Part shown: positions 16,416-23,583 of the stretch, piece after piece | Layout: every line of letters begins with the position of its first letter | How positions within the stretch are numbered: the stretch's first letter is position 1 | Assembly (NCBI GenBank): GCA_020630975.1 | Contig: JAHDID010000001.1 | Coordinates: 141,687 to 205,686, forward strand | Origin: Verrucomicrobiota bacterium | GTDB lineage: Bacteria; Verrucomicrobiota; Verrucomicrobiia; Verrucomicrobiales; DEV007 | Length of the DNA: 64,000 bases | Direction: 5' to 3' | Notes under the pieces: generated by a model | What the model was told of the DNA's origin: nothing | Databases searched by the model: none | Seen by the model: only the letters and a program-made list of their open reading frames with translations | Translations under genes and position numbers: made by a program

Positions 16416-17000
16416 TCACGACAGCAGAAACGGCTCCCAATCCTCAATATCGTGAGGATTCTTGAGTAGAGCGGTCACTGGCATCTCGCGCGGGGCTATC
16501 GGCTGCCTCTGCAGCTTCAGCCCGGCTTCTTCTGGTGTCCGGTTCGCTTTACGCGAGTTCACCCCGGTATCGGCGAGCACACAGTTTTCCCATGTGGTAG
16601 CGCCACCGCGTGAGCGCGGTATGACGTGGTCGATATTTCCCTCACCTGGGCGCAGCACCTTGCCGGTGTACTGGCAGCGACCACCATCTCGCTCCCACAG
16701 ATTGCGCGCATTGAACTTTGGGCGCTTCATCGGCACTTTGGCAAAATTCGACACGACTACGACTGTCGGGATACGGATACGACCACTGGCTGTACCGATA
16801 CTAGCGTCTTCATCCCGCACGGGTAGTTTTTTCCAGTCTTCCCATTTCGTAGGCACCATCCAGTCGGTTCCCTGTATATCTAGCGCTGTAGATACATCGG
16901 ATGCCATCTGGCAAAATGCCTCCGCTGGGGTTCGCGTATTGATCGCCTGCCAATTACGGTTTAGGACCAAAACGACTTTCTGATGGAGGATACTATTCAT
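16416..17000 (-). CDS. HNH endonuclease family protein
   Basis: 194 aa. The nuclease core lies at about residues 105-160, with CQYTGKV, NIDHVIPRSRGG and a final NSRKANRTPEEAG. The N-terminal half (VVLVLNRNWQAINTRTPAEAF) is the conserved extension found in a widespread housekeeping HNH family of unknown role. It is a single-gene unit with its own terminator. Confidence 0.8.
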   Translation of the reverse strand: MNSILHQKVVLVLNRNWQAINTRTPAEAFCQMASDVSTALDIQGTDWMVPTKWEDWKKLPVRDEDASIGTASGRIRIPTVVVVSNFAKVPMKRPKFNARNLWERDGGRCQYTGKVLRPGEGNIDHVIPRSRGGATTWENCVLADTGVNSRKANRTPEEAGLKLQRQPIAPREMPVTALLKNPHDIEDWEPFLLS

Positions 17001-17432: not shown

Positions 17433-18872
17433 CTACAGGGCTACTTTCTCAATTTCTCGCAGTAGCGCAGATTTATCCTCTTCGAGAAATCGCATAGTCG
17501 ACAAAGTCTTATCTGAAAACCCAGCCATGCTGTAGATATCTCTCTCAGGGAACTGCAAGCTACCATAACCAGCCAGATCGAAGGTAAAGACCTTTGGTCG
17601 GATACCTGCTCTCTGCACGTAGTTCTCAAAGGCAGCCTTTGGGCAGTAATAACCGACCCATGCCTGCATATCGGATAGTATCACGATACGATCGTACCGA
17701 CCCTTTGCCCGATCAAAGATCGAGTGGAAGTCTGTGCCTCCCCACTGCGCCTTCTCCTCCAGACGCTGGGCTAGCGACAGAGTCGCATCATCCGCATTCA
17801 GAGAAGTGTAGTGCGCATCGCCGCTGAATAACATCAGGTCAGCGTCGTTTGCCTTGTACAGGACGGAGGCAAACAGCGAACCGATCTTCATAGGCTTTCC
17901 GATCATCGATCCCGAGCAGTCTAAAGCCACCAGAGTACGCCCTGGGAACTTTGGCACATTGCCTAGCGACAGGTCAGCCGCTTGACTCAAGGCTCGCACC
18001 ACTCGCTGGCGCGACTTGCGTGGCAGATCTGCCTGCTCCAGCGCATCCAGAGCCGACCGGTAGCGAAAAGGCAACACCTTTGAGCTTTGCACCAACTTCT
18101 CATCGACCAACATCGCTTCGACTCGATCGATCTCGTCAGGCGCCTGCTCTAGGATATTGCGCAGGTTTCGGAGTAGAGCGAAGTAGCCGATCTTGCGAGA
18201 ACCGATCAAGTCAGACCAGGCTTGTGCCTTTTTGCTTTCCTTATCGGTGTCGCTATCCGCTTGCTGCCCAGCCTGAGTCAGCTTGGTCTCCCAAGTCTCA
18301 GCCGGAGCCAGCTCGCCCTTCACCAGGCTCGCGATCGCAGGGGTGTGAGGTGGGTGCACCAGGTTCACCGCATCGACCATCTTCAGCTCAGCACCATCTT
18401 TTCGGTACTTCGCCAGCTGGTAGGCATCGAATCGGGCCAACGCTTTACCCAGACCTTTCTTCAAAGAGTTGGGCAGCGGCTTGCCATACACAGCCATGCA
18501 GTAGGACAGGATCTCGAGCACATCATCTGCCCGATAGACCACACGATCGAAGAAATCCTTAGTCCACTGCTCACCCTTCACAGAGTGAGCCAGCTCGCCA
18601 GCTACTAGGTGAGACACAGAGCGCATCCCAGCCTCGCGCCGCGCGTACAAAGCCGCTTTGGCGACAAACTTCTTATCCGGTATCTTCGCTACTAGCTCGG
18701 TCAGACGCTTAGCAGTGGCATTGGCACTGCGGTAGTACTGAGCATCGAGAAAACTGGTCAGCATGATAGTCGCCAGCTCCATTTTTTCAGTCTGCTGGTA
18801 GGCCTGGCCGCCAGCCAGATTCAAAGTATTCGGCTTAGCTTGCCGCGATTTTAGTAGTTTATTGAATTTCAT
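17433..18872 (-). CDS. TROVE-domain (Ro60/Rsr-like) RNA-binding protein
   Basis: 479 aa. The N-terminal two thirds is a TROVE HEAT-repeat ring: NLAGGQAYQQTEKMEL, then KIPDKKFVAKAALYARREAGMRSVSHLVAGELA. The C-terminal third is a von Willebrand A domain with an intact MIDAS start (VALDCSGSM) and SDMQAWVG. Ro-family proteins bind Y RNAs and misfolded non-coding RNAs. A strong AAGGAG site lies 12 nt before the ATG, unusual for this window. It ends a minus-strand array of about 22 tRNA-like genes, which suggests these are its ligands, though that is inference. No rtcB or rtcA is present in the window. Confidence 0.92.
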   Translation of the reverse strand: MKFNKLLKSRQAKPNTLNLAGGQAYQQTEKMELATIMLTSFLDAQYYRSANATAKRLTELVAKIPDKKFVAKAALYARREAGMRSVSHLVAGELAHSVKGEQWTKDFFDRVVYRADDVLEILSYCMAVYGKPLPNSLKKGLGKALARFDAYQLAKYRKDGAELKMVDAVNLVHPPHTPAIASLVKGELAPAETWETKLTQAGQQADSDTDKESKKAQAWSDLIGSRKIGYFALLRNLRNILEQAPDEIDRVEAMLVDEKLVQSSKVLPFRYRSALDALEQADLPRKSRQRVVRALSQAADLSLGNVPKFPGRTLVALDCSGSMIGKPMKIGSLFASVLYKANDADLMLFSGDAHYTSLNADDATLSLAQRLEEKAQWGGTDFHSIFDRAKGRYDRIVILSDMQAWVGYYCPKAAFENYVQRAGIRPKVFTFDLAGYGSLQFPERDIYSMAGFSDKTLSTMRFLEEDKSALLREIEKVAL

Positions 18873-18933
18873 TTTATGATTTCACTCCTTTCTGTGTTTG
18901 GTTGATAGAAAGAGAATTTTTGAAGAGAAAAAC

Positions 18934-19026
18934 GAACAGGGATGCGAGTTCCCCCCGATGAGGGAGAACCAGTTTATCAGACTGGTGTATTTTGGTGATA
19001 CGAAGTAACCCTATTCTCACTGCTTC
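18934..19026 (-). ncRNA. tRNA-like element with shared leader (possibly permuted, unresolved)
   Basis: It begins with the leader seen in three other array elements (GCAGTGAG, then GGGTTACTTCG) and ends in a complementary trailer; GAATAGGG and CCCTGTTC pair over 8 bp. Inside is a 5+7+5 stem-loop CCAGT-CTGATAA-ACTGG that looks like a tRNA-Ile(GAU) anticodon arm. Next comes TTCTCCC, which can pair with GGGGGAA after a six-base linker, as in a permuted acceptor stem. A four-bp stem with a seven-base loop (CACCAAA) precedes the anticodon-like arm. No T-arm can be placed. The identity is open. Confidence 0.45.
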
Positions 19027-19034
19027 AAAAAAAT

Positions 19035-19109
19035 TGGCAGCCAAGCACGGATTCGCACCGTGATCTTCGCAGTCAGAGTGCGATATCCTAACTATTGGAC
19101 GACTCGGCG
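19035..19109 (-). tRNA. tRNA-Gln(CUG), non-canonical elbow
   Basis: Normal gene order. The anticodon loop is CTCTGAC. The D-loop is AATAGTTA (A18-G19) and the T-loop TGCGAAT (G55-C56). Pair 1-72 is mismatched (C/U). A 3' CCA appears to be encoded. Confidence 0.8.
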
Positions 19110-19128
19110 ATAAAGAGAGAGGTAAGTA

Positions 19129-19159
19129 ATCTCAGAGAAAAGTGGCTTGGGGACATAAT
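19129..19159 (-). other. Trailer of permuted tRNA-Asn
   Basis: Pairs with the leader at 19241-19269: 7 bp (ATCTCAG/CTGAGAT), then AGTG/CACT, then TGGG/CCCA, with bulges between. This brings the two ends to be joined close together. Confidence 0.5.
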
Positions 19160-19240
19160 CGTGCTCTACCGACTGAGCTACCTCCCGATAAAAAGTCGGG
19201 AGAGTGGGACTCGAACCCACGACCACGCGATTAACAATCG
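19160..19240 (-). tRNA. Permuted tRNA-Asn(GUU): 3' half precedes 5' half
   Basis: In transcript order the 3' half comes first (19240-19196: CGA, loop TTGTTAA, TCGCG, TGGTC, canonical T-arm GTGGG-TTCGAGT-CCCAC, TCTCCCG, A). An eight-base linker follows, then the 5' half (19187-19160: CGGGAGG, TA, D-arm GCTC-AGTCGGTA-GAGC, A, CG). Joining base 19160 to 19240 gives a perfect anticodon stem, CGCGA/TCGCG. The acceptor halves pair over seven positions with one wobble. The whole lies inside a leader/trailer helix (ATCTCAG at 19269 with CTGAGAT at 19135). It keeps the standard elbow (GG with TTC). Confidence 0.72.
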
Positions 19241-19357
19241 AAGTAACCCATATGCCTCACTGCTGAGATAAAACTTGGGGGAGAAAAAAGTAAGATTAGC
19301 AGTCTCACCAGACTGACTAACTAAAGGCTGAAAGAAACGCGACCTCACTGTATGAGG

Positions 19358-19467
19358 AATCTGTGTAATCTGTGCCTCATCTGAGAAAATCTGTGAAAAA
19401 ATGATCTACCTTATCAGCCTAAGGCTCTGCAGAGATTCACTCAGATTAGGCACAGATTACACAGATT
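19358..19467. repeat. Inverted repeat, 28-bp arms
   Basis: Arms 19358-19385 and 19440-19467 match in 27 of 28 positions; the loop is 54 nt. The arm contains AATCTGTGTAATCTGTG, a word that resembles dispersed bacterial intergenic repeats. It lies between the two permuted tRNA genes. Confidence 0.75.
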
Positions 19468-19546
19468 TTTCTTAGCCTGTTCAAATACAAATTTCTTTTG
19501 GTATGAAAAAGTAAGATTCGCGGAGTAAATCGAGCCGAGCATGTTT

Positions 19547-19626
19547 TTCAACTACTGGGCCATATAGGAGGCCCAGATAGGAGTCGAACCTATATCGTCT
19601 GAAGACTAGTCAGATGTTGTATACCG
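19547..19626 (-). tRNA. Permuted tRNA-Thr(AGU): 3' half precedes 5' half
   Basis: The 3' half comes first: CGGTATA, CAAC, A, anticodon arm TCTGA-CTAGTCT-TCAGA, T-arm ATAGG-TTCGACT-CCTAT, CTGGGCC. After a short linker comes the 5' half: GGCCCAG, TA, GTTG, AA. The acceptor stem is a perfect 7 bp, and the D-stem is completed across the halves (GTTG with CAAC), so the junction falls in the D-loop. An outer 10-bp helix (AGATTCGCGG with CCGCGAATCT) encloses it from 19659 to 19514. Position 37 is C, which is unusual. It keeps the standard elbow. Confidence 0.7.
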
Positions 19627-19663
19627 AAGTATCTCGAAATCTCTCACTACCGCGAATCTAAAA

Positions 19664-19736
19664 TGCCCAAGCACGGATTTGCACCGTGTTTATCCGGCTT
19701 CAAAGGCCGGCGCATTACTGCATATGCTACTTGGGG
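19664..19736 (-). tRNA. tRNA-Gln(UUG), non-canonical elbow
   Basis: Cloverleaf with the anticodon loop CTTTGAA. D-loop ATGCAGTA (A18-G19), T-loop TGCAAAT (G55-C56). Pair 1-72 is C/C, as the other Gln tRNA is also mismatched there. Confidence 0.82.
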
Positions 19737-19748
19737 TTAAAAGGGTGA

Positions 19749-19822
19749 TACCCATGGTAGGACTCGCACCTACAACCTCCGGTTTCTAAGACCGGCGCCT
19801 CTGCTAATTGGGCTACATGGGC
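19749..19822 (-). tRNA. tRNA with anticodon UAG (Leu codon CUA), short variable loop
   Basis: Complete cloverleaf, anticodon loop CTTAGAA. D-loop contains TTAGCAG (A18-G19), T-loop TGCGAGT (G55-C56). Leu tRNAs normally have a long variable arm; this one has five bases, so its charging identity is uncertain. Confidence 0.75.
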
Positions 19823-19850
19823 ATAAATTATAAGACATCAAATGGTCACT

Positions 19851-19940
19851 CTATGTAGGGTCAGCTTGTAGCTGACCGACAGGCTGAGGCATCACCTCAT
19901 ACAGAGGGAAGCCGGTCAGCTACAAGCTGACCCTACATAG
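19851..19940. repeat. Perfect inverted repeat, 28-bp arms
   Basis: Arms 19851-19878 and 19913-19940 are exact reverse complements; the loop is 34 nt. Part of the arm and adjacent loop (GTAGGGTCAGC, AGGCTGAG) recurs in degenerate form at 22170-22204. It could act as a strong terminator or processing site between a tRNA and a protein gene. Confidence 0.8.
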
Positions 19941-19975
19941 GCGAATGCAACCGCAGGGCCTCGACCGGCCCAGAA

Positions 19976-20800
19976 TTAGTCGAGGAACGCGACATTCTGC
20001 ATTGCAGATGTCTGGTTCTCCGTGTTCATCAAGACCTTGTGCCAGCCTCTCAACTTGACGGTCTTGTGATCTGGGTGACGCACAGTGCCTCGAGCATAGA
20101 CCTCGGGATTTCGACGCGACACCTGCCAGCCGATTCGCTTGGATGGGTTGGCTTTGATCCGCTTGTTGTATTGAGCCACGGTCAACACCTCTCCAGAGTT
20201 CCAGTTCACATAGACGGTCTCACCATTGGAGCGGACCAACTCCTTCACGATATGCGGCTTGCTACCTCTACCACGAGAGATCGGCTCGTTTTGCAAAATC
20301 TGAAAAGGCGCAAAGTCGACATCCTCCACCGGTACAAAGAACCATTCACCTTGCCGAATGTAAGCCTTGTTGTGTCGACGGTTACGATCTTTTGCTTTCA
20401 GGCGATGATACACCTGAGCATCGATCACAGCCGACGGCTTCAGTGCTTCCTTCGCATCGACCACAGTGGATGCGGTCCCTGGCACGGCAGCGACAAACCA
20501 CTCTCGCTCGTCGAAACCACAGAGGAATCGCTCGCGCCTTCCTTCGGAGTTCACGACCAACGTCAGCAGACTCCTATCGGCTGGCAGGCTCTGTAGCACC
20601 TGCATATCGATATCCGAAGAAAATGCTTTGGATACCGAAAAGACAAACTGCTCCCGCCCTGATTGTGAAGACTGCACATCTAAACTGTAGTCAATAGGTG
20701 CAGGTGAAGCCCACCACTGTTGGCGAGCAGGAACCATATCCTCGAACACAATATGCGCCCCTATTTTAGCAAAATGCTTTTGGATAGTATTAGTATTCAT
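19976..20800 (-). CDS. Unknown protein encoded inside the tRNA array
   Basis: 274 aa, soluble, no signal peptide or membrane segment. I do not recognise the family. Notable stretches are YIRQGEWFFVPVED (about residue 146), GRGSKPHIVKELV (about 180) and VRHPDHKTVKLRGWHKV near the C terminus, where two His and a Trp are closely spaced. Basic residues are frequent (KAKDRNRRHNK), compatible with RNA binding. It is flanked by tRNA-like genes on the same strand and ends next to a perfect inverted repeat. Its position suggests a role with the array RNAs; this is inference only. Confidence 0.75.
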   Translation of the reverse strand: MNTNTIQKHFAKIGAHIVFEDMVPARQQWWASPAPIDYSLDVQSSQSGREQFVFSVSKAFSSDIDMQVLQSLPADRSLLTLVVNSEGRRERFLCGFDEREWFVAAVPGTASTVVDAKEALKPSAVIDAQVYHRLKAKDRNRRHNKAYIRQGEWFFVPVEDVDFAPFQILQNEPISRGRGSKPHIVKELVRSNGETVYVNWNSGEVLTVAQYNKRIKANPSKRIGWQVSRRNPEVYARGTVRHPDHKTVKLRGWHKVLMNTENQTSAMQNVAFLD

Positions 20801-20820
20801 TTTATTGGTTAAAATTCAGA

Positions 20821-20893
20821 TAGCTACGGCCGGATTCGAACCGGCACTGATTCGGGCTTAAACCGAATGCCTCTGCCGTTGGGCTACGCAGCT
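20821..20893 (-). tRNA. tRNA with anticodon UAA (Leu codon UUA), short variable loop
   Basis: Perfect cloverleaf, anticodon loop TTTAAGC. D-loop includes CGGCAG (G18-G19), T-loop TTCGAAT, a standard elbow. Five-base variable loop although the anticodon is that of Leu. Confidence 0.78.
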
Positions 20894-20907
20894 TTTTATG
20901 ATAGAAA

Positions 20908-20979
20908 CACTCCCGGTAGGATTCGAACCTACGACCTTGAGTTTCGAAGACTCCTGCTCTTCCGCTGAGCTACGAGAGT
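20908..20979 (-). tRNA. tRNA-Arg(UCG), standard elbow
   Basis: Anticodon loop CTTCGAA, D-loop AGCGGAA (GG), T-loop TTCGAAT. One mismatch at the base of the anticodon stem. Confidence 0.88.
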
Positions 20980-20991
20980 AGATAGAAAAAC

Positions 20992-21061
20992 ACCTCCACA
21001 TGGTTCCGCCCCATGAACTTCGGAGTAACAATCCGATGTGATACTATTTCACCACAGAGGT
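20992..21061 (-). tRNA. tRNA-Asn(GUU), non-canonical elbow
   Basis: Normal gene order, a second Asn gene besides the permuted one. Anticodon loop TTGTTAC, D-loop AATAGTA (A18-G19), T-loop GGCGGAA (G54, G55, C56, G58). Confidence 0.78.
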
Positions 21062-21076
21062 AACTAAAAAAATACG

Positions 21077-21159
21077 GAGCGGAGGGATCGAACCTCTCGA
21101 CAGCCGACCCACGGTTTTACGTCGTCAGCTTAGAAGGCTGGTGTGGGAGCGCCCCGCTC
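21077..21159 (-). tRNA. tRNA-Arg(UCU)-like, no D-arm, enlarged variable region
   Basis: The anticodon stem-loop CAGC-CTTCTAA-GCTG and T-loop TTCGATC are clear. There is no D-arm: the segment CCCAC (about 21147-21143) can instead pair with GTGGG (21112-21108) in an enlarged variable region. The acceptor plus T stack is shorter than the usual 12 bp. It may be aberrant or a new fold. Confidence 0.55.
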
Positions 21160-21167
21160 AAGAAAGA

Positions 21168-21239
21168 TAGGACTGGCTGGAATCGAACCAGCGGCCAAGG
21201 GATTATGAGTCCCCTGCTCTACCATTGAGCTACAGTCCC
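21168..21239 (-). tRNA. tRNA-Met(CAU), standard elbow
   Basis: Canonical cloverleaf, anticodon loop CTCATAA, D-loop AATGGTA, T-loop TTCGATT. CAU could also be a lysidine-modified Ile tRNA. Confidence 0.9.
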
Positions 21240-21262
21240 GTGGATAGCCCCAATAAAGGGAT

Positions 21263-21334
21263 TGGAGCCTAGGACAGGACTCTCACCCGCATACTCCGAT
21301 TTACAAAATCGGCGCACTTGTCTGCCACCTAGGC
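21263..21334 (-). tRNA. tRNA-Thr(UGU), non-canonical elbow
   Basis: Anticodon loop TTTGTAA. D-loop GACAAG (A18-G19), T-loop TGAGAGT (G55, A56), the only array member lacking C56. An encoded 3' CCA follows the discriminator. Confidence 0.75.
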
Positions 21335-21345
21335 ATAGAAAATAT

Positions 21346-21416
21346 ACGCTGTGCCGGTACTGCCCCGGCTTCTTCAGTTTGGAAGACTGACATCATCGCT
21401 TTTAGACCAACAGCGC
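21346..21416 (-). tRNA. tRNA-Gly(UCC), non-canonical elbow
   Basis: Anticodon arm TCAGT-CTTCCAA-ACTGA. D-loop TAAAAGC (A18-G19), T-arm GCCGG-GGCAGTA-CCGGC (G54, G55, C56, G58). Extra bases separate the D- and anticodon stems. Confidence 0.75.
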
Positions 21417-21492
21417 TCATCATCCCACGAAACACAACTCAGAGAATAATGGTTGGGTACAGCCAAAAAAATATGGCTACCGATGTAGATCG

Positions 21493-21629
21493 AGCAGTGA
21501 AGAATCTGCCCGACACTGATCACGCAGGTAGATCTACAGGAGATCGTCACCGCTGTCGCTAGGCCGATCGCTCGGCTGTCACTACCTTAGGGTCGTTATA
21601 GTTACGAAGTAACCCAAATCCTCGCTGCT
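21493..21629 (-). ncRNA. Leader-bearing tRNA-like element (unresolved)
   Basis: Starts with the shared leader (AGCAGCGAGGATT, then GGGTTACTTCG). The leader pairs with a trailer ATTCTTCACTGCT in 11 of 13 positions (about 21505-21493). It contains a GCCGA-GCGA-TCGGC hairpin that could be a long variable arm, and two copies of a GTAGATC-type acceptor sequence. I could not assign an anticodon or reconstruct a cloverleaf. Confidence 0.4.
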
Positions 21630-21665
21630 GAGGTACCGTTGTGGACGCAAGATTAGAAGTAAAAG

Positions 21666-21736
21666 AGATGCCGACAGGACTTGCACCTGCATGCGATGGG
21701 TTGCAGCCATCTGCCTCGCTGTTCGGCCACGGCATC
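21666..21736 (-). tRNA. tRNA-Cys(GCA), non-canonical elbow
   Basis: Perfect acceptor stem GATGCCG/CGGCATC, anticodon loop CTGCAAC. D-loop GAACAGCGA (A18-G19), T-loop TGCAAGT (G55-C56). Confidence 0.82.
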
Positions 21737-21747
21737 ATTAAAAAAAG

Positions 21748-21818
21748 TTCTCCCGGAAGGTACCGCCCCTTCTTCACTAGCTTAAAAGGCAAGTGCATCA
21801 CTTTAATGCTTCGAGAGA
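21748..21818 (-). tRNA. tRNA-Lys(UUU), non-canonical elbow
   Basis: Anticodon loop CTTTTAA with one U/U mismatch in the stem. D-loop TAAAGTG (A18-G19), T-arm GAAGG-GGCGGTA-CCTTC (G54, G58). Confidence 0.75.
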
Positions 21819-21822
21819 ATAA

Positions 21823-21894
21823 CATCCCAGCCAGGAATCGAACCTGAAGTAGCTGATAGAAAGTCAGCTGTGTTAGCCATTACACCACAGGGAC
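21823..21894 (-). tRNA. tRNA-Glu(UUC), standard elbow
   Basis: Anticodon arm GCTGA-CTTTCTA-TCAGC. D-loop AATGGCTA (GG), T-loop TTCGATT. Position 37 is U instead of a purine. Confidence 0.85.
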
Positions 21895-21912
21895 ATGGGT
21901 ATAGATATATAA

Positions 21913-21987
21913 TCGGGGTAGCAGGATTCGAACCTGCGGCTTCTGGTACCCAAAACCAGCGCTCTGACCAGACTGAGCTATACCCCG
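21913..21987 (-). tRNA. tRNA-Pro(UGG), standard elbow
   Basis: Fully canonical: CGGGGTA/TACCCCG acceptor, anticodon loop TTTGGGT, D-loop AGTCTGGTCA, T-loop TTCGAAT. Confidence 0.93.
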
Positions 21988-22003
21988 CTCTTTAATAGAA
22001 AAA

Positions 22004-22076
22004 TCCGATCGACGGGCCTCGCACCCGCGCAGCTACCTTCACAGGGTAGAATGCTAACTATCTACATCACGATCGG
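22004..22076 (-). tRNA. tRNA-His(GUG), non-canonical elbow, no G-1
   Basis: Acceptor CCGATCG/CGATCGG, anticodon loop CTGTGAA. D-loop AGATAGTTA (A18-G19), T-loop TGCGAGG (G55-C56). The genomic base at -1 is A and the discriminator is A, so the G-1:C73 identity pair of most bacterial tRNA-His is absent. Confidence 0.8.
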
Positions 22077-22223
22077 TGTATGAAATGAACTGGCCCACGC
22101 TACGGACCTAAAAAACGCCATGGCACTACCCCACGGCTATGGGCTCGATCAGCTACCTGCTGTCACTGCGTAGGGTCAGCCTTTAGCTGCCCGGCAGGCT
22201 GAGCACTACAGCCAGCTCAGGAC
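22077..22223. other. Array segment without a recognised gene
   Basis: Minus-strand sequence has a GCCCAT/GTGGGC complementarity at roughly tRNA-acceptor distance, but no cloverleaf could be built. A degenerate copy of the 19851 repeat occupies 22170-22204. Confidence 0.4.
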
Positions 22224-22688
22224 TCACGGAGTCGTAATCTGCCCTCGCCCATGATCCTTCTTAGATGGAGGGACGATCGCCACCGAGTCAGTCTCATCCT
22301 TCGGTGCGGCCTCTACTTTGCCTGTAGTGGTCTTGTTTTTACGCCGCTCACGTAGCGGCACGACCTGAATATCGGTAGTCCTCTCTCGTTCACACACGAG
22401 AAATTCAACATCACTCACTTTGATCACGTCGCCCGCCTTAAACTTGGCTGGCTGGTAGGGCACTAGCCTGTCGCCATTGAGAAATGTTCCATTCGAGGAG
22501 TCACAGTCCTCGATCGATGGTGCCACCTCACCCTCCATCAGGATCTGGGCGTGGCGAGACGAGACCGAGCCTTGGTCGATGCACACGCGATTAGATGGAT
22601 CTCGACCAATCGAGATCTTGTCGCCTTCTAGATCAATCTCCTGAGCCGAGCCAGCAGTTTTGATCAGGGTTTTTAGCACATAGTCCAT
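22224..22688 (-). CDS. FHA-domain protein
   Basis: 154 aa. The forkhead-associated fold spans residues about 18-90 with ISIGRDPSNRVCI, SSRHAQI (the phosphothreonine-contacting Ser-Arg-His) and DCDSSNGTFLNGDRL. The C-terminal tail is basic and disordered (RERRKNKTTTGK). FHA domains bind phosphothreonine peptides, so a Ser/Thr kinase partner is expected, but none is in the window. It is 79 bp downstream of another FHA gene, inside the tRNA array. Confidence 0.88.
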   Translation of the reverse strand: MDYVLKTLIKTAGSAQEIDLEGDKISIGRDPSNRVCIDQGSVSSRHAQILMEGEVAPSIEDCDSSNGTFLNGDRLVPYQPAKFKAGDVIKVSDVEFLVCERERTTDIQVVPLRERRKNKTTTGKVEAAPKDETDSVAIVPPSKKDHGRGQITTP

Positions 22689-22767
22689 CCACGAGACGCG
22701 GAGTGAATCTTACCCCAAAACCCGTGTCTACGGGAAGAGCAAAACAATCCTACCTGCCCTGCCAGGA

Positions 22768-23277
22768 CTACCCGACAGGTGAGAAAGGATCGTAACCCCT
22801 CTTTTTGGGGTAGCCAGCATAGGGCTTTCGCTTACTGGGGCTTTTACTATCCTGCTTAGCACGCGCCGAGCGTACAGCTTTGGGAGATTTACTATTCAAA
22901 AATCCAGGCTTGTAGTCAGCTTCCCAACCCCAGCTCACCGGAGTCAGATCACTCACAGGGCCAACAGTCGCTGCCGCCGTATGAGTCGCCACTACCACAC
23001 ATCCAGCCACACCAAAGCGAACTTCGTCTCCCACCGACAGCGCAGTAGGCTCTGAGATCGCTATACCGTTTACAAAGGTACCATTCCTCGATCCCAGATC
23101 CTCAATACTGTGCCCACCGCCAGGCAGCGGGTTCAGCCTCGCATGCTGAGCAGAGACTGATGATTCGAAAATCTGCAGCTTGTTAAAAGCATTCCGACCG
23201 ACCGATACGGACTCTCCAGCTGGCAGGTCGACATTGTCGCCATGCCCATTAGCAGCGATTTGCAGGCTTAGTTCCAT
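22768..23277 (-). CDS. FHA-domain protein with basic C-terminal tail
   Basis: 169 aa. FHA core at residues about 20-90: SVGRNAFNKLQIF, SAQHARL and DLGSRNGTFVNG; Ala-Gln-His replaces the usual Ser-Arg-His, though the NGTF strand is intact. The tail is Lys/Ser/Arg-rich (RSARAKQDSKSPSKRKP), plausible for nucleic acid contact. A perfect TATAAT at 23318-23313 lies 36-41 bp upstream of the start, so the two FHA genes may have their own promoter within the array. Confidence 0.86.
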   Translation of the reverse strand: MELSLQIAANGHGDNVDLPAGESVSVGRNAFNKLQIFESSVSAQHARLNPLPGGGHSIEDLGSRNGTFVNGIAISEPTALSVGDEVRFGVAGCVVVATHTAAATVGPVSDLTPVSWGWEADYKPGFLNSKSPKAVRSARAKQDSKSPSKRKPYAGYPKKRGYDPFSPVG

Positions 23278-23434
23278 TAGAGTTGTGTAAGGTGTTTGTG
23301 CAAACGACCGAGATTATACTGCCCAGCCGCCTTATGAGATTAGCAATAAAAATGCCAAACACAAAGTAGAAGGCAAATTATGTCCAAAAAATTTACAACC
23401 TTTTTATAATTTCCGTAAATTAAACCTGACTAAC

Positions 23435-23506
23435 TGGCTCGTGATGGTACCGCACCATCCTCTCATCGCCTTCAACGACGCGCTAATCTCTCTCAGCTAA
23501 CGAGCC
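23435..23506 (-). tRNA. tRNA-Phe(GAA), non-canonical elbow
   Basis: Perfect acceptor GGCTCGT/ACGAGCC, anticodon loop TTGAAGG. D-loop AGAGAGAT (A18-G19), T-arm GATGG-TGCGGTA-CCATC. It is the one tRNA that does not fit the 54/58 pattern (U54, G58). Confidence 0.8.
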
Positions 23507-23512
23507 TAAAAA

Positions 23513-23583
23513 TCGCTCCGGATGGTAATGCTCCACCGTCTTCCGGTTATCAACCGGGTGCTCTACTTTTGAGCTACGAAGCG
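23513..23583 (-). tRNA. tRNA-Ile(GAU), non-canonical elbow
   Basis: Acceptor CGCTTCG/CGGAGCG, anticodon loop TTGATAA. D-loop AAAAGTA (A18-G19), T-loop AGCATTA (A54, G55, C56, U58). Confidence 0.78.

What the first reader, a model, noticed from the sequence alone, without database searches (positions are those of the whole stretch)
19514..19659. A second permuted tRNA, Thr(AGU), with its junction in the D-loop
The 3' half (19626-19570) and 5' half (19561-19547) are again reversed. The acceptor stem is seven perfect pairs and the D-stem (GTTG with CAAC) exists only after rejoining. The enclosing helix is longer (10 bp) than in the Asn gene, and the leader ends in ATACTTCGG, like the TTACTTCG of Asn. 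Two permuted genes with different junction positions but a common leader make a chance arrangement of half-tRNAs unlikely.
Basis: partly seen in the sequence, partly recalled or inferred. Interest (0 to 1): 0.88.

Follow-up and report, generated by a model that had tools for sequence, protein, structure and literature searches.

The report
Y RNA shaped like scrambled tRNA
The scrambled threonine tRNA is most likely not a tRNA gene but a small RNA (a Y RNA) that carries a tRNA-like head on a stem for the neighbouring Ro60-type protein, one of a set of tRNA and ribosomal-RNA look-alikes kept beside that protein in Verrucomicrobiales.

Summary
On the minus strand at 19659-19514 a 3' tRNA half precedes a 5' half inside a 10-bp helix, and ARAGORN reads the rejoined halves as tRNA-Thr(agt). 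Two T-arm-plus-acceptor-hairpin arrangements occur in the window; none of 100 shuffles had two. The interpretation needs changing. The element lies in a tRNA array just upstream of a TROVE (Ro60/Rsr) gene. A covariance model built only from 'Asn'-type elements finds it full-length (47.9 bits, E 8.6e-10), and the 'Asn' element is a sub-threshold match to Rfam YrlA, a bacterial Y RNA. Among seven elements of this topology the D-stem is seen only here and the anticodon loop changes, while the outer helix is kept with changing sequence in the five checked. No splicing endonuclease and no bulge-helix-bulge at the junction were found. I read it as a Ro60-bound Y RNA whose head is a tRNA mimic. Sister RNAs attach the cloverleaf to the same stem at other points, or carry a 23S rRNA H69-71 copy. 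Decoying of RNA-cleaving enzymes is inferred, not shown.

The parts
19514..19659 (-). The finding: Y-RNA-like element with a tRNA module opened at the D arm ('Thr')
   Evidence: R1 hit 19515-19659, 47.9 bits
19650..19659 (-). 5' strand of the outer helix, AGATTCGCGG, followed by the conserved box TAGTGAG
19514..19523 (-). 3' strand of the outer helix, CCGCGAATCT, preceded by the T-rich box TTTACT
19624..19632 (-). Leader box ATACTTCGG shared by the element family
19598..19614 (-). Anticodon stem-loop TCTGA-CTAGTCT-TCAGA (triplet AGT)
19577..19593 (-). T arm
19555..19576 (-). Acceptor stem as a closed hairpin (7 bp, 8-nt loop)
19127..19271 (-). Sister element 'Asn': YrlA-type, stem opens between D arm and anticodon arm
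   Evidence: Rfam YrlA 35.8 bits, below gathering; A1 pair counts; R1 128.6 bits, a training member
18917..19032 (-). Sister element with an anticodon-arm mimic (GAT)
   Evidence: R1 40.5 bits; z -3.89
21434..21637 (-). Sister element with a 23S rRNA H69-71-like module
   Evidence: R1 30.2 bits; 4 mismatches of 28 to 23S; 3 of 3 blastn matches are 23S genes; z only -0.89
17433..18872 (-). TROVE / Ro60 (Rsr) protein gene, 479 aa, directly downstream
   Evidence: Pfam TROVE 6.7e-19; PDB TROVE and Rsr chains
19035..23583 (-). Array of ordinary-order, partly degenerate tRNAs around the Y RNAs

Best explanation
The element is the gene of a bacterial Y RNA, not of a tRNA. Its two ends pair into a stem that the TROVE/Ro60 protein encoded just downstream is expected to bind. 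The loop end is a tRNA mimic with anticodon arm, T arm and an acceptor stem closed into a hairpin. The stem enters where the D arm would be, which is why the two tRNA halves appear reversed. It needs no splicing or circularisation, and with a closed acceptor it cannot be charged unless cut. Shown here: anatomy, conserved covarying stem, homology to YrlA-like RNAs, linkage to TROVE. Inferred from known Y RNAs: Ro60 binding. Inferred from the set as a whole (anticodon loops with varied triplets, a 23S H69-71 copy, a tRNA array): these Ro60 particles present look-alikes of tRNA and rRNA as decoys or baits for enzymes that attack translation RNA, or as adaptors that bring such enzymes to Ro60.
For: TROVE gene adjacent (PDB TROVE and Rsr matches). 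The sister 'Asn' element matches Rfam YrlA at E 3.3e-5, below gathering. Model R1, built from 14 type I elements without Thr, finds Thr full-length at 47.9 bits. Type I structure: 94.6% of cells paired, 42 double-change cells, 0 of 500 shuffles as high. Outer helix in 14 type I and 5 type II elements: 131 of 133 pairs, against 4.75 of 7 when strands of different elements are crossed. R1 matches at E up to 1e-4 lie in 16 of 17 family TROVE loci and 17 of 18 further order loci examined (13 of the family loci supplied the training rows; 18 of 51 further TROVE-positive order genomes were fetched). Best R1 score in a family genome without a TROVE match is 34.9 bits, apart from G012, which holds a Ro60-type gene that the TROVE model missed (vWA_Ro60 2.2e-16). 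In type I elements 22 of 22 seven-base anticodon loops in the expected register have T at position 33, with 16 distinct loops (10 further elements do not fit that register).
Against: No expression or binding data. Thr itself is not listed as YrlA by Rfam even at E up to 5, and Asn is under the gathering score. The window's D-stem gives an exact cloverleaf on rejoining, which a pure Y RNA does not need. Only 7 elements of this topology are known, 2 of them in one genome. The inner helix is poorly kept in A1 (69% paired). The 23S-like element folds no better than shuffles. The H69-71 copies as read lack the UUCCU site that MazF-mt6 is reported to cut, so a decoy for that toxin is not supported.
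Confidence: 0.78

Rival explanations
1. [quoted passage not shown]
For: Halves in permuted order, rejoined cloverleaf called tRNA-Thr(agt); bacterial RNase P RNA in the window; three RtcB matches in the genome.
Against: No splicing endonuclease family match in the genome, with 4 archaeal controls positive; no bulge-helix-bulge at the exon ends; other elements of this topology lack the D-stem and differ in anticodon loop; ordinary tRNA-Thr GGT and TGT present.
Confidence: 0.05
2. A Y RNA whose tRNA-like head only tethers Ro60 to PNPase or another nuclease (RYPER-like); the anticodon loop is a structural leftover.
For: This is the described role of bacterial Y RNAs (passages of PMC8394870).
Against: Anticodon loops keep U33 and vary in triplet, and one module copies 23S rRNA, neither of which tethering needs.
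Confidence: 0.35
3. A decaying tRNA fragment cluster from a phage or mobile element, with no function.
For: Patchy TROVE distribution, 17 of 74 family genomes; a huge phage carries a TROVE gene 48% identical with the same leader box upstream.
Against: Covarying outer helix and T stem, stable folding (z -4.50), repeated association with TROVE.
Confidence: 0.05

Closest known systems
YrlA, bacterial Y RNA (Rfam RF02553), of rsr-yrl-rtcBA operons
   Same: Next to a TROVE/Rsr gene; ends pair into a stem; tRNA parts in permuted order with the acceptor as closed hairpin
   Different: Here an anticodon stem-loop is present, which the YrlA model lacks and which a review's list of D, T and acceptor arms does not name; Thr opens at the D arm and has no YrlA-type D arm; stem boxes differ (CAGTGAG / TTTTCT here, GAATGC / CTTGTC in canonical ones); linked to a tRNA array, no rtcBA seen beside it in the window genes searched
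Circularly permuted tRNA genes of algae and archaea (PMC3978253)
   Same: 3' half before 5' half, short intervening loop, leader and trailer that pair
   Different: No bulge-helix-bulge at the junction, no splicing endonuclease, tRNA identity not conserved
Two-piece (permuted) tmRNA
   Same: Bacterial RNA encoded as a permuted gene (mentioned in PMC3978253)
   Different: Rfam lists only an 18-position tmRNA match, in the T arm of the Asn element, below gathering
Phage tRNA arrays that counter tRNA-targeting defences (PMC11555353, passages)
   Same: Many tRNAs in one array, possible answer to tRNA-cleaving defences
   Different: A bacterial genome here, with TROVE protein and Y RNAs

Membership tests
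Circularly permuted tRNA gene | 3' half precedes 5' half and rejoining gives a cloverleaf | tested here: met
   ARAGORN tRNA-Thr(agt)
Circularly permuted tRNA gene | Bulge-helix-bulge motif at the junction | tested here: not met
   Four matches to the strict layout (G-T pairs allowed), all in the outer stem, none at the exon ends
Circularly permuted tRNA gene | tRNA splicing endonuclease in the genome | tested here: not met
   PF01974: 0 matches, 4 archaeal controls positive; genome 95.8% complete
Circularly permuted tRNA gene | tRNA fold kept in relatives | tested here: not met
   D-stem in 1 of 7 by inspection, acceptor hairpin 7/7 in 4 of 7, different anticodon loops
Circularly permuted tRNA gene | Circular intermediate and charged tRNA | not testable with these tools
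   needs RNA
Bacterial Y RNA (broad class) | Encoded beside a Ro60/TROVE gene | tested here: met
Bacterial Y RNA (broad class) | 5' and 3' ends pair in a conserved stem | tested here: met
   5 of 5 type II elements counted pair 7/7 with different sequences
Bacterial Y RNA (broad class) | tRNA-like effector module | tested here: met
Bacterial Y RNA (broad class) | Bound by Rsr/Ro60 | not testable with these tools
   needs protein and RNA
Rfam RF02553 YrlA | Score at or above gathering (69 bits) | tested here: not met
   Asn 35.8 bits; Thr not listed
Rfam RF02553 YrlA | D arm, T arm and acceptor hairpin in YrlA order | tested here: inconclusive
   Met by the 'Asn' type; in Thr the stem takes the place of the D arm

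The most novel reading that the evidence does not exclude
Verrucomicrobiales carry islands in which a Ro60 protein is encoded with a tRNA array and a small library of Y RNAs. On these the tRNA cloverleaf is attached to one common stem at different points (acceptor end, D arm, or between D and anticodon arms), with varied anticodons, or is replaced by a 23S H69-71 copy. The library would work as decoys or baits against ribonucleases that cut tRNA anticodon loops and rRNA.
Probability: 0.35. Interest if true: 0.9.

Novelty: new variant of a known kind. Interest (0 to 1): 0.7.

Why it matters
What the tRNA-like head of bacterial Y RNAs does is open. Hughes et al. 2020 (PMC7790460, passages read) suggest it may compete for an anticodon nuclease. 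RNAs that keep an anticodon loop with U33 but vary its triplet, alongside a copy of 23S H69-71, make that idea directly testable. The case also warns that permuted tRNA halves in bacteria can be Y RNAs.

Tried and rejected
A permuted group I intron around the halves was considered from the leader similarity and dropped: leader and trailer are only about 33 nt each, and the relaxed Rfam scan listed no group I intron there. Sigma-70 promoter and terminator scans were uninformative (1 promoter-like site against 5.5 in shuffles). The RNAalifold structure used for model R1 missed the acceptor hairpin because MAFFT misaligned it in three rows; helix counts were therefore made on a structure I named, without the acceptor, and the acceptor was checked per element. 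In the type II alignment A2 the window's outer helix is shifted by two columns, so the strands were compared directly. Low-scoring R1 matches (about 27-34 bits) in the family scan, many of them covering only model positions 32-68 or 32-107, were not counted as elements. A scan for other rRNA copies gave nothing convincing; short patterns matched about as chance would. Chen 2014, Wang 2018, Sim and Wolin 2018 and Sim 2020 on Y RNAs are not held, so what they say comes from papers that cite them.

Full report
Observation. ARAGORN calls the joined halves tRNA-Thr(agt); the same test on the neighbouring element gives tRNA-Asn(gtt). Chance is unlikely: a 5/5 T arm followed at once by a 7/7 hairpin occurs twice in 64 kb, at exactly these two elements, against a mean of 0.13 and a maximum of 1 in 100 shuffles. 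The element folds at -53.0 kcal/mol, z -4.50, 0 of 200 shuffles as stable.

Surroundings. The element sits in an array of tRNA genes on one strand (12 by ARAGORN; further ones by Rfam), several with unusual T loops. Directly downstream, 18872-17433, is a gene for a TROVE-domain protein (Pfam E 6.7e-19) whose PDB relatives include two TROVE-domain proteins, the Rsr protein and Ro60. Four elements in the cluster share the leader box (TTACTTCG or ATACTTCG): Thr, Asn, a short one with a GAT anticodon-arm mimic, and one with a stretch like 23S rRNA H69-71.

Identity. Rfam at relaxed threshold matches the Asn element to YrlA, the bacterial Y-RNA-like family, at 35.8 bits and E 3.3e-5, below the gathering score of 69. 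The TROVE protein was used to fetch named relatives: 5 loci, four from MAGs named Verrucomicrobiales, Verrucomicrobiia or Akkermansiaceae and one from an Actinomycetes MAG. In all five, Rfam again lists a sub-threshold YrlA match near the TROVE gene (the Actinomycetes one only 25.6 bits). The alignment for L004 shows what is new: between the YrlA CUAC and the T arm lies an inserted anticodon stem-loop, CUUCGACUGAUAAUCGAG. [quoted passage not shown]

Family of elements. TROVE was found in 17 of 74 genomes of the family and 68 of 386 of the order. I fetched stretches around all 16 other family loci and 18 of the 51 further order-level positives. Fourteen YrlA-like 'type I' elements from 13 genomes were aligned (A1). 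In a structure of 24 pairs 94.6% of cells are paired, 12 pairs show changes on both sides in 42 cells, and none of 500 shuffles reaches these values (the count of pair types does not exceed its shuffles, 241 of 500); the inner helix is weak (69%) and the D-arm helix hardly varies. All 14 have a 5/5 T arm, and 13 of 14 a 7/7 acceptor hairpin immediately after it. Model R1, built from these 14 only, finds the Thr element over its full length at 47.9 bits, E 8.6e-10. It also finds the short element (40.5 bits) and the 23S-like element (30.2 bits). R1 finds matches at E up to 1e-4 in 16 of 17 family TROVE loci (the exception, G011, is cut off by the contig end; 13 of the 16 supplied training rows) and in 17 of 18 order loci. 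In the family-wide scan the best score in a genome without a TROVE match is 34.9 bits, except G012. G012 holds RtcR, a Ro60-type protein (vWA_Ro60 domain; the TROVE model missed it), RtcB and the RNA cyclase with two canonical YrlA-like RNAs between them and no tRNA in 16 kb.

The Thr topology. Seven elements open like Thr: the window, G031, two in G068, G006, G060 and G054. In the five first found, the outer helix pairs 7 of 7 in each with different sequences, against a mean of 4.75 of 7 when strands of different elements are crossed (the two G068 elements were found later and were not in this count). Acceptor hairpins are 7/7 in 4 of 7; a 4-bp D-stem with tRNA spacing is seen by inspection only in the window. 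Anticodon arms with a 7-nt loop and T33 were found in the window, G031, G068a and G054; G068b and G006 have other loop lengths, and for G060 the script listed none. So the stem takes the place of the D arm, and the tRNA identity is not what is conserved.

Other attachments of the same stem. In type I the stem opens between D and anticodon arms. In a third arrangement the cloverleaf is in normal order and the stem takes the place of the acceptor: 16 elements in 16 of 35 sources scanned (17 hits; one, L085 11259, I dropped as a chance match without a tRNA pattern). Of 32 type I elements, 22 have a 3-bp stem and 7-nt anticodon loop in the expected register; all 22 have T at position 33, with 16 distinct loops and 15 different triplets. 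The other 10 do not fit that register. The 23S H69-71 module is present at 1-4 mismatches of 28 in four loci: window, G031, G060, G025. The three blastn matches of the window copy in E. coli genomes, weak by E-value, are all annotated 23S rRNA.

tRNA arrays. All 18 order loci have at least 5 ARAGORN tRNAs; a few of these calls are Y elements misread. The arrays are thus part of the setting and not peculiar to this genome.

Why not a permuted tRNA gene. Known ones, 34 from six algae and one archaeon in a 2014 review, have a bulge-helix-bulge motif at the junction and are thought to use the splicing endonuclease (PMC3978253, abstract and passages). Here the motif is absent at the exon ends (four matches lie inside the outer stem). 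The genome has no match to PF01974 while 4 archaeal controls do. It has RtcB (3 matches), so ligation alone is not excluded. Ordinary tRNA-Thr GGT and TGT genes exist.

How it probably works. Known Y RNAs tether Rsr to PNPase (PMC8394870, passages). Hughes et al. 2020 propose that the YrlA head might instead inhibit an anticodon nuclease, noting that YrlA itself is not cleaved (PMC7790460, passages). The conserved U33 with varied triplets and the 23S copy point to presentation of RNA targets. MazF toxins are reported to cut helix/loop 70 of 23S and VapC to cut an anticodon arm (PMC5408214, passages). The copies here, as read, lack the UUCCU site given for MazF-mt6, so no particular toxin is claimed. 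This last step is inference.

Phage link. Of 50,697 phage records 151 have a match to the TROVE protein. The best, a 634,780-base uncultured phage, is 48.4% identical over the full length and has two elements with the GAGATACTTCG box upstream but no ARAGORN tRNA within the 31 kb fetched; R1 did not list them at E up to 1e-4.

Not in print? Searches of the held library listed no paper whose title or abstract start describes TROVE islands with tRNA arrays or full-tRNA Y RNAs; the main Y-RNA papers are not held, so this is weak. The Borg paper PMC11208441 holds the terms TROVE domain and Ro60 (search listing only).

Noticed in passing
21434-21637 (-): Y-RNA-like element with a copy of 23S rRNA H69-71 (TAACTATAACGACCCTAAGGTAG); relatives in L036, L044 and L050 with 1-3 mismatches of 28.
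   Followed up: partly
L047 5267, L093 9840, L095 9443, L098 9826 and 12 others: Third arrangement: normal-order D, anticodon and T arms on the same stem, which takes the place of the acceptor.
   Followed up: partly
L088 2999, L089 2193, L092 2379, L044 6037: A longer element type, box TTTCTTCG or TACTTCG, with conserved inner sequence ending in a T arm; what it imitates is unknown.
   Followed up: no
19035-23583 (-): Array tRNAs with non-standard T loops such as AGCATTA, GGCAGTA, GGCGGAA; may be elbow-degenerate tRNAs.
   Followed up: no
L052 14510-14903: Huge phage LR745206.1 carries a TROVE gene and two elements with the same leader box.
   Followed up: partly
L083 7673-14830: Same-family genome with RtcR, a Ro60-type protein, two YrlA-like RNAs, RtcB and RNA cyclase, without a tRNA array.
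   Followed up: yes
19976-20800 (-); 16416-17000 (-): A 274-aa protein without Pfam match inside the array and an HNH endonuclease gene beyond the TROVE gene.
   Followed up: no
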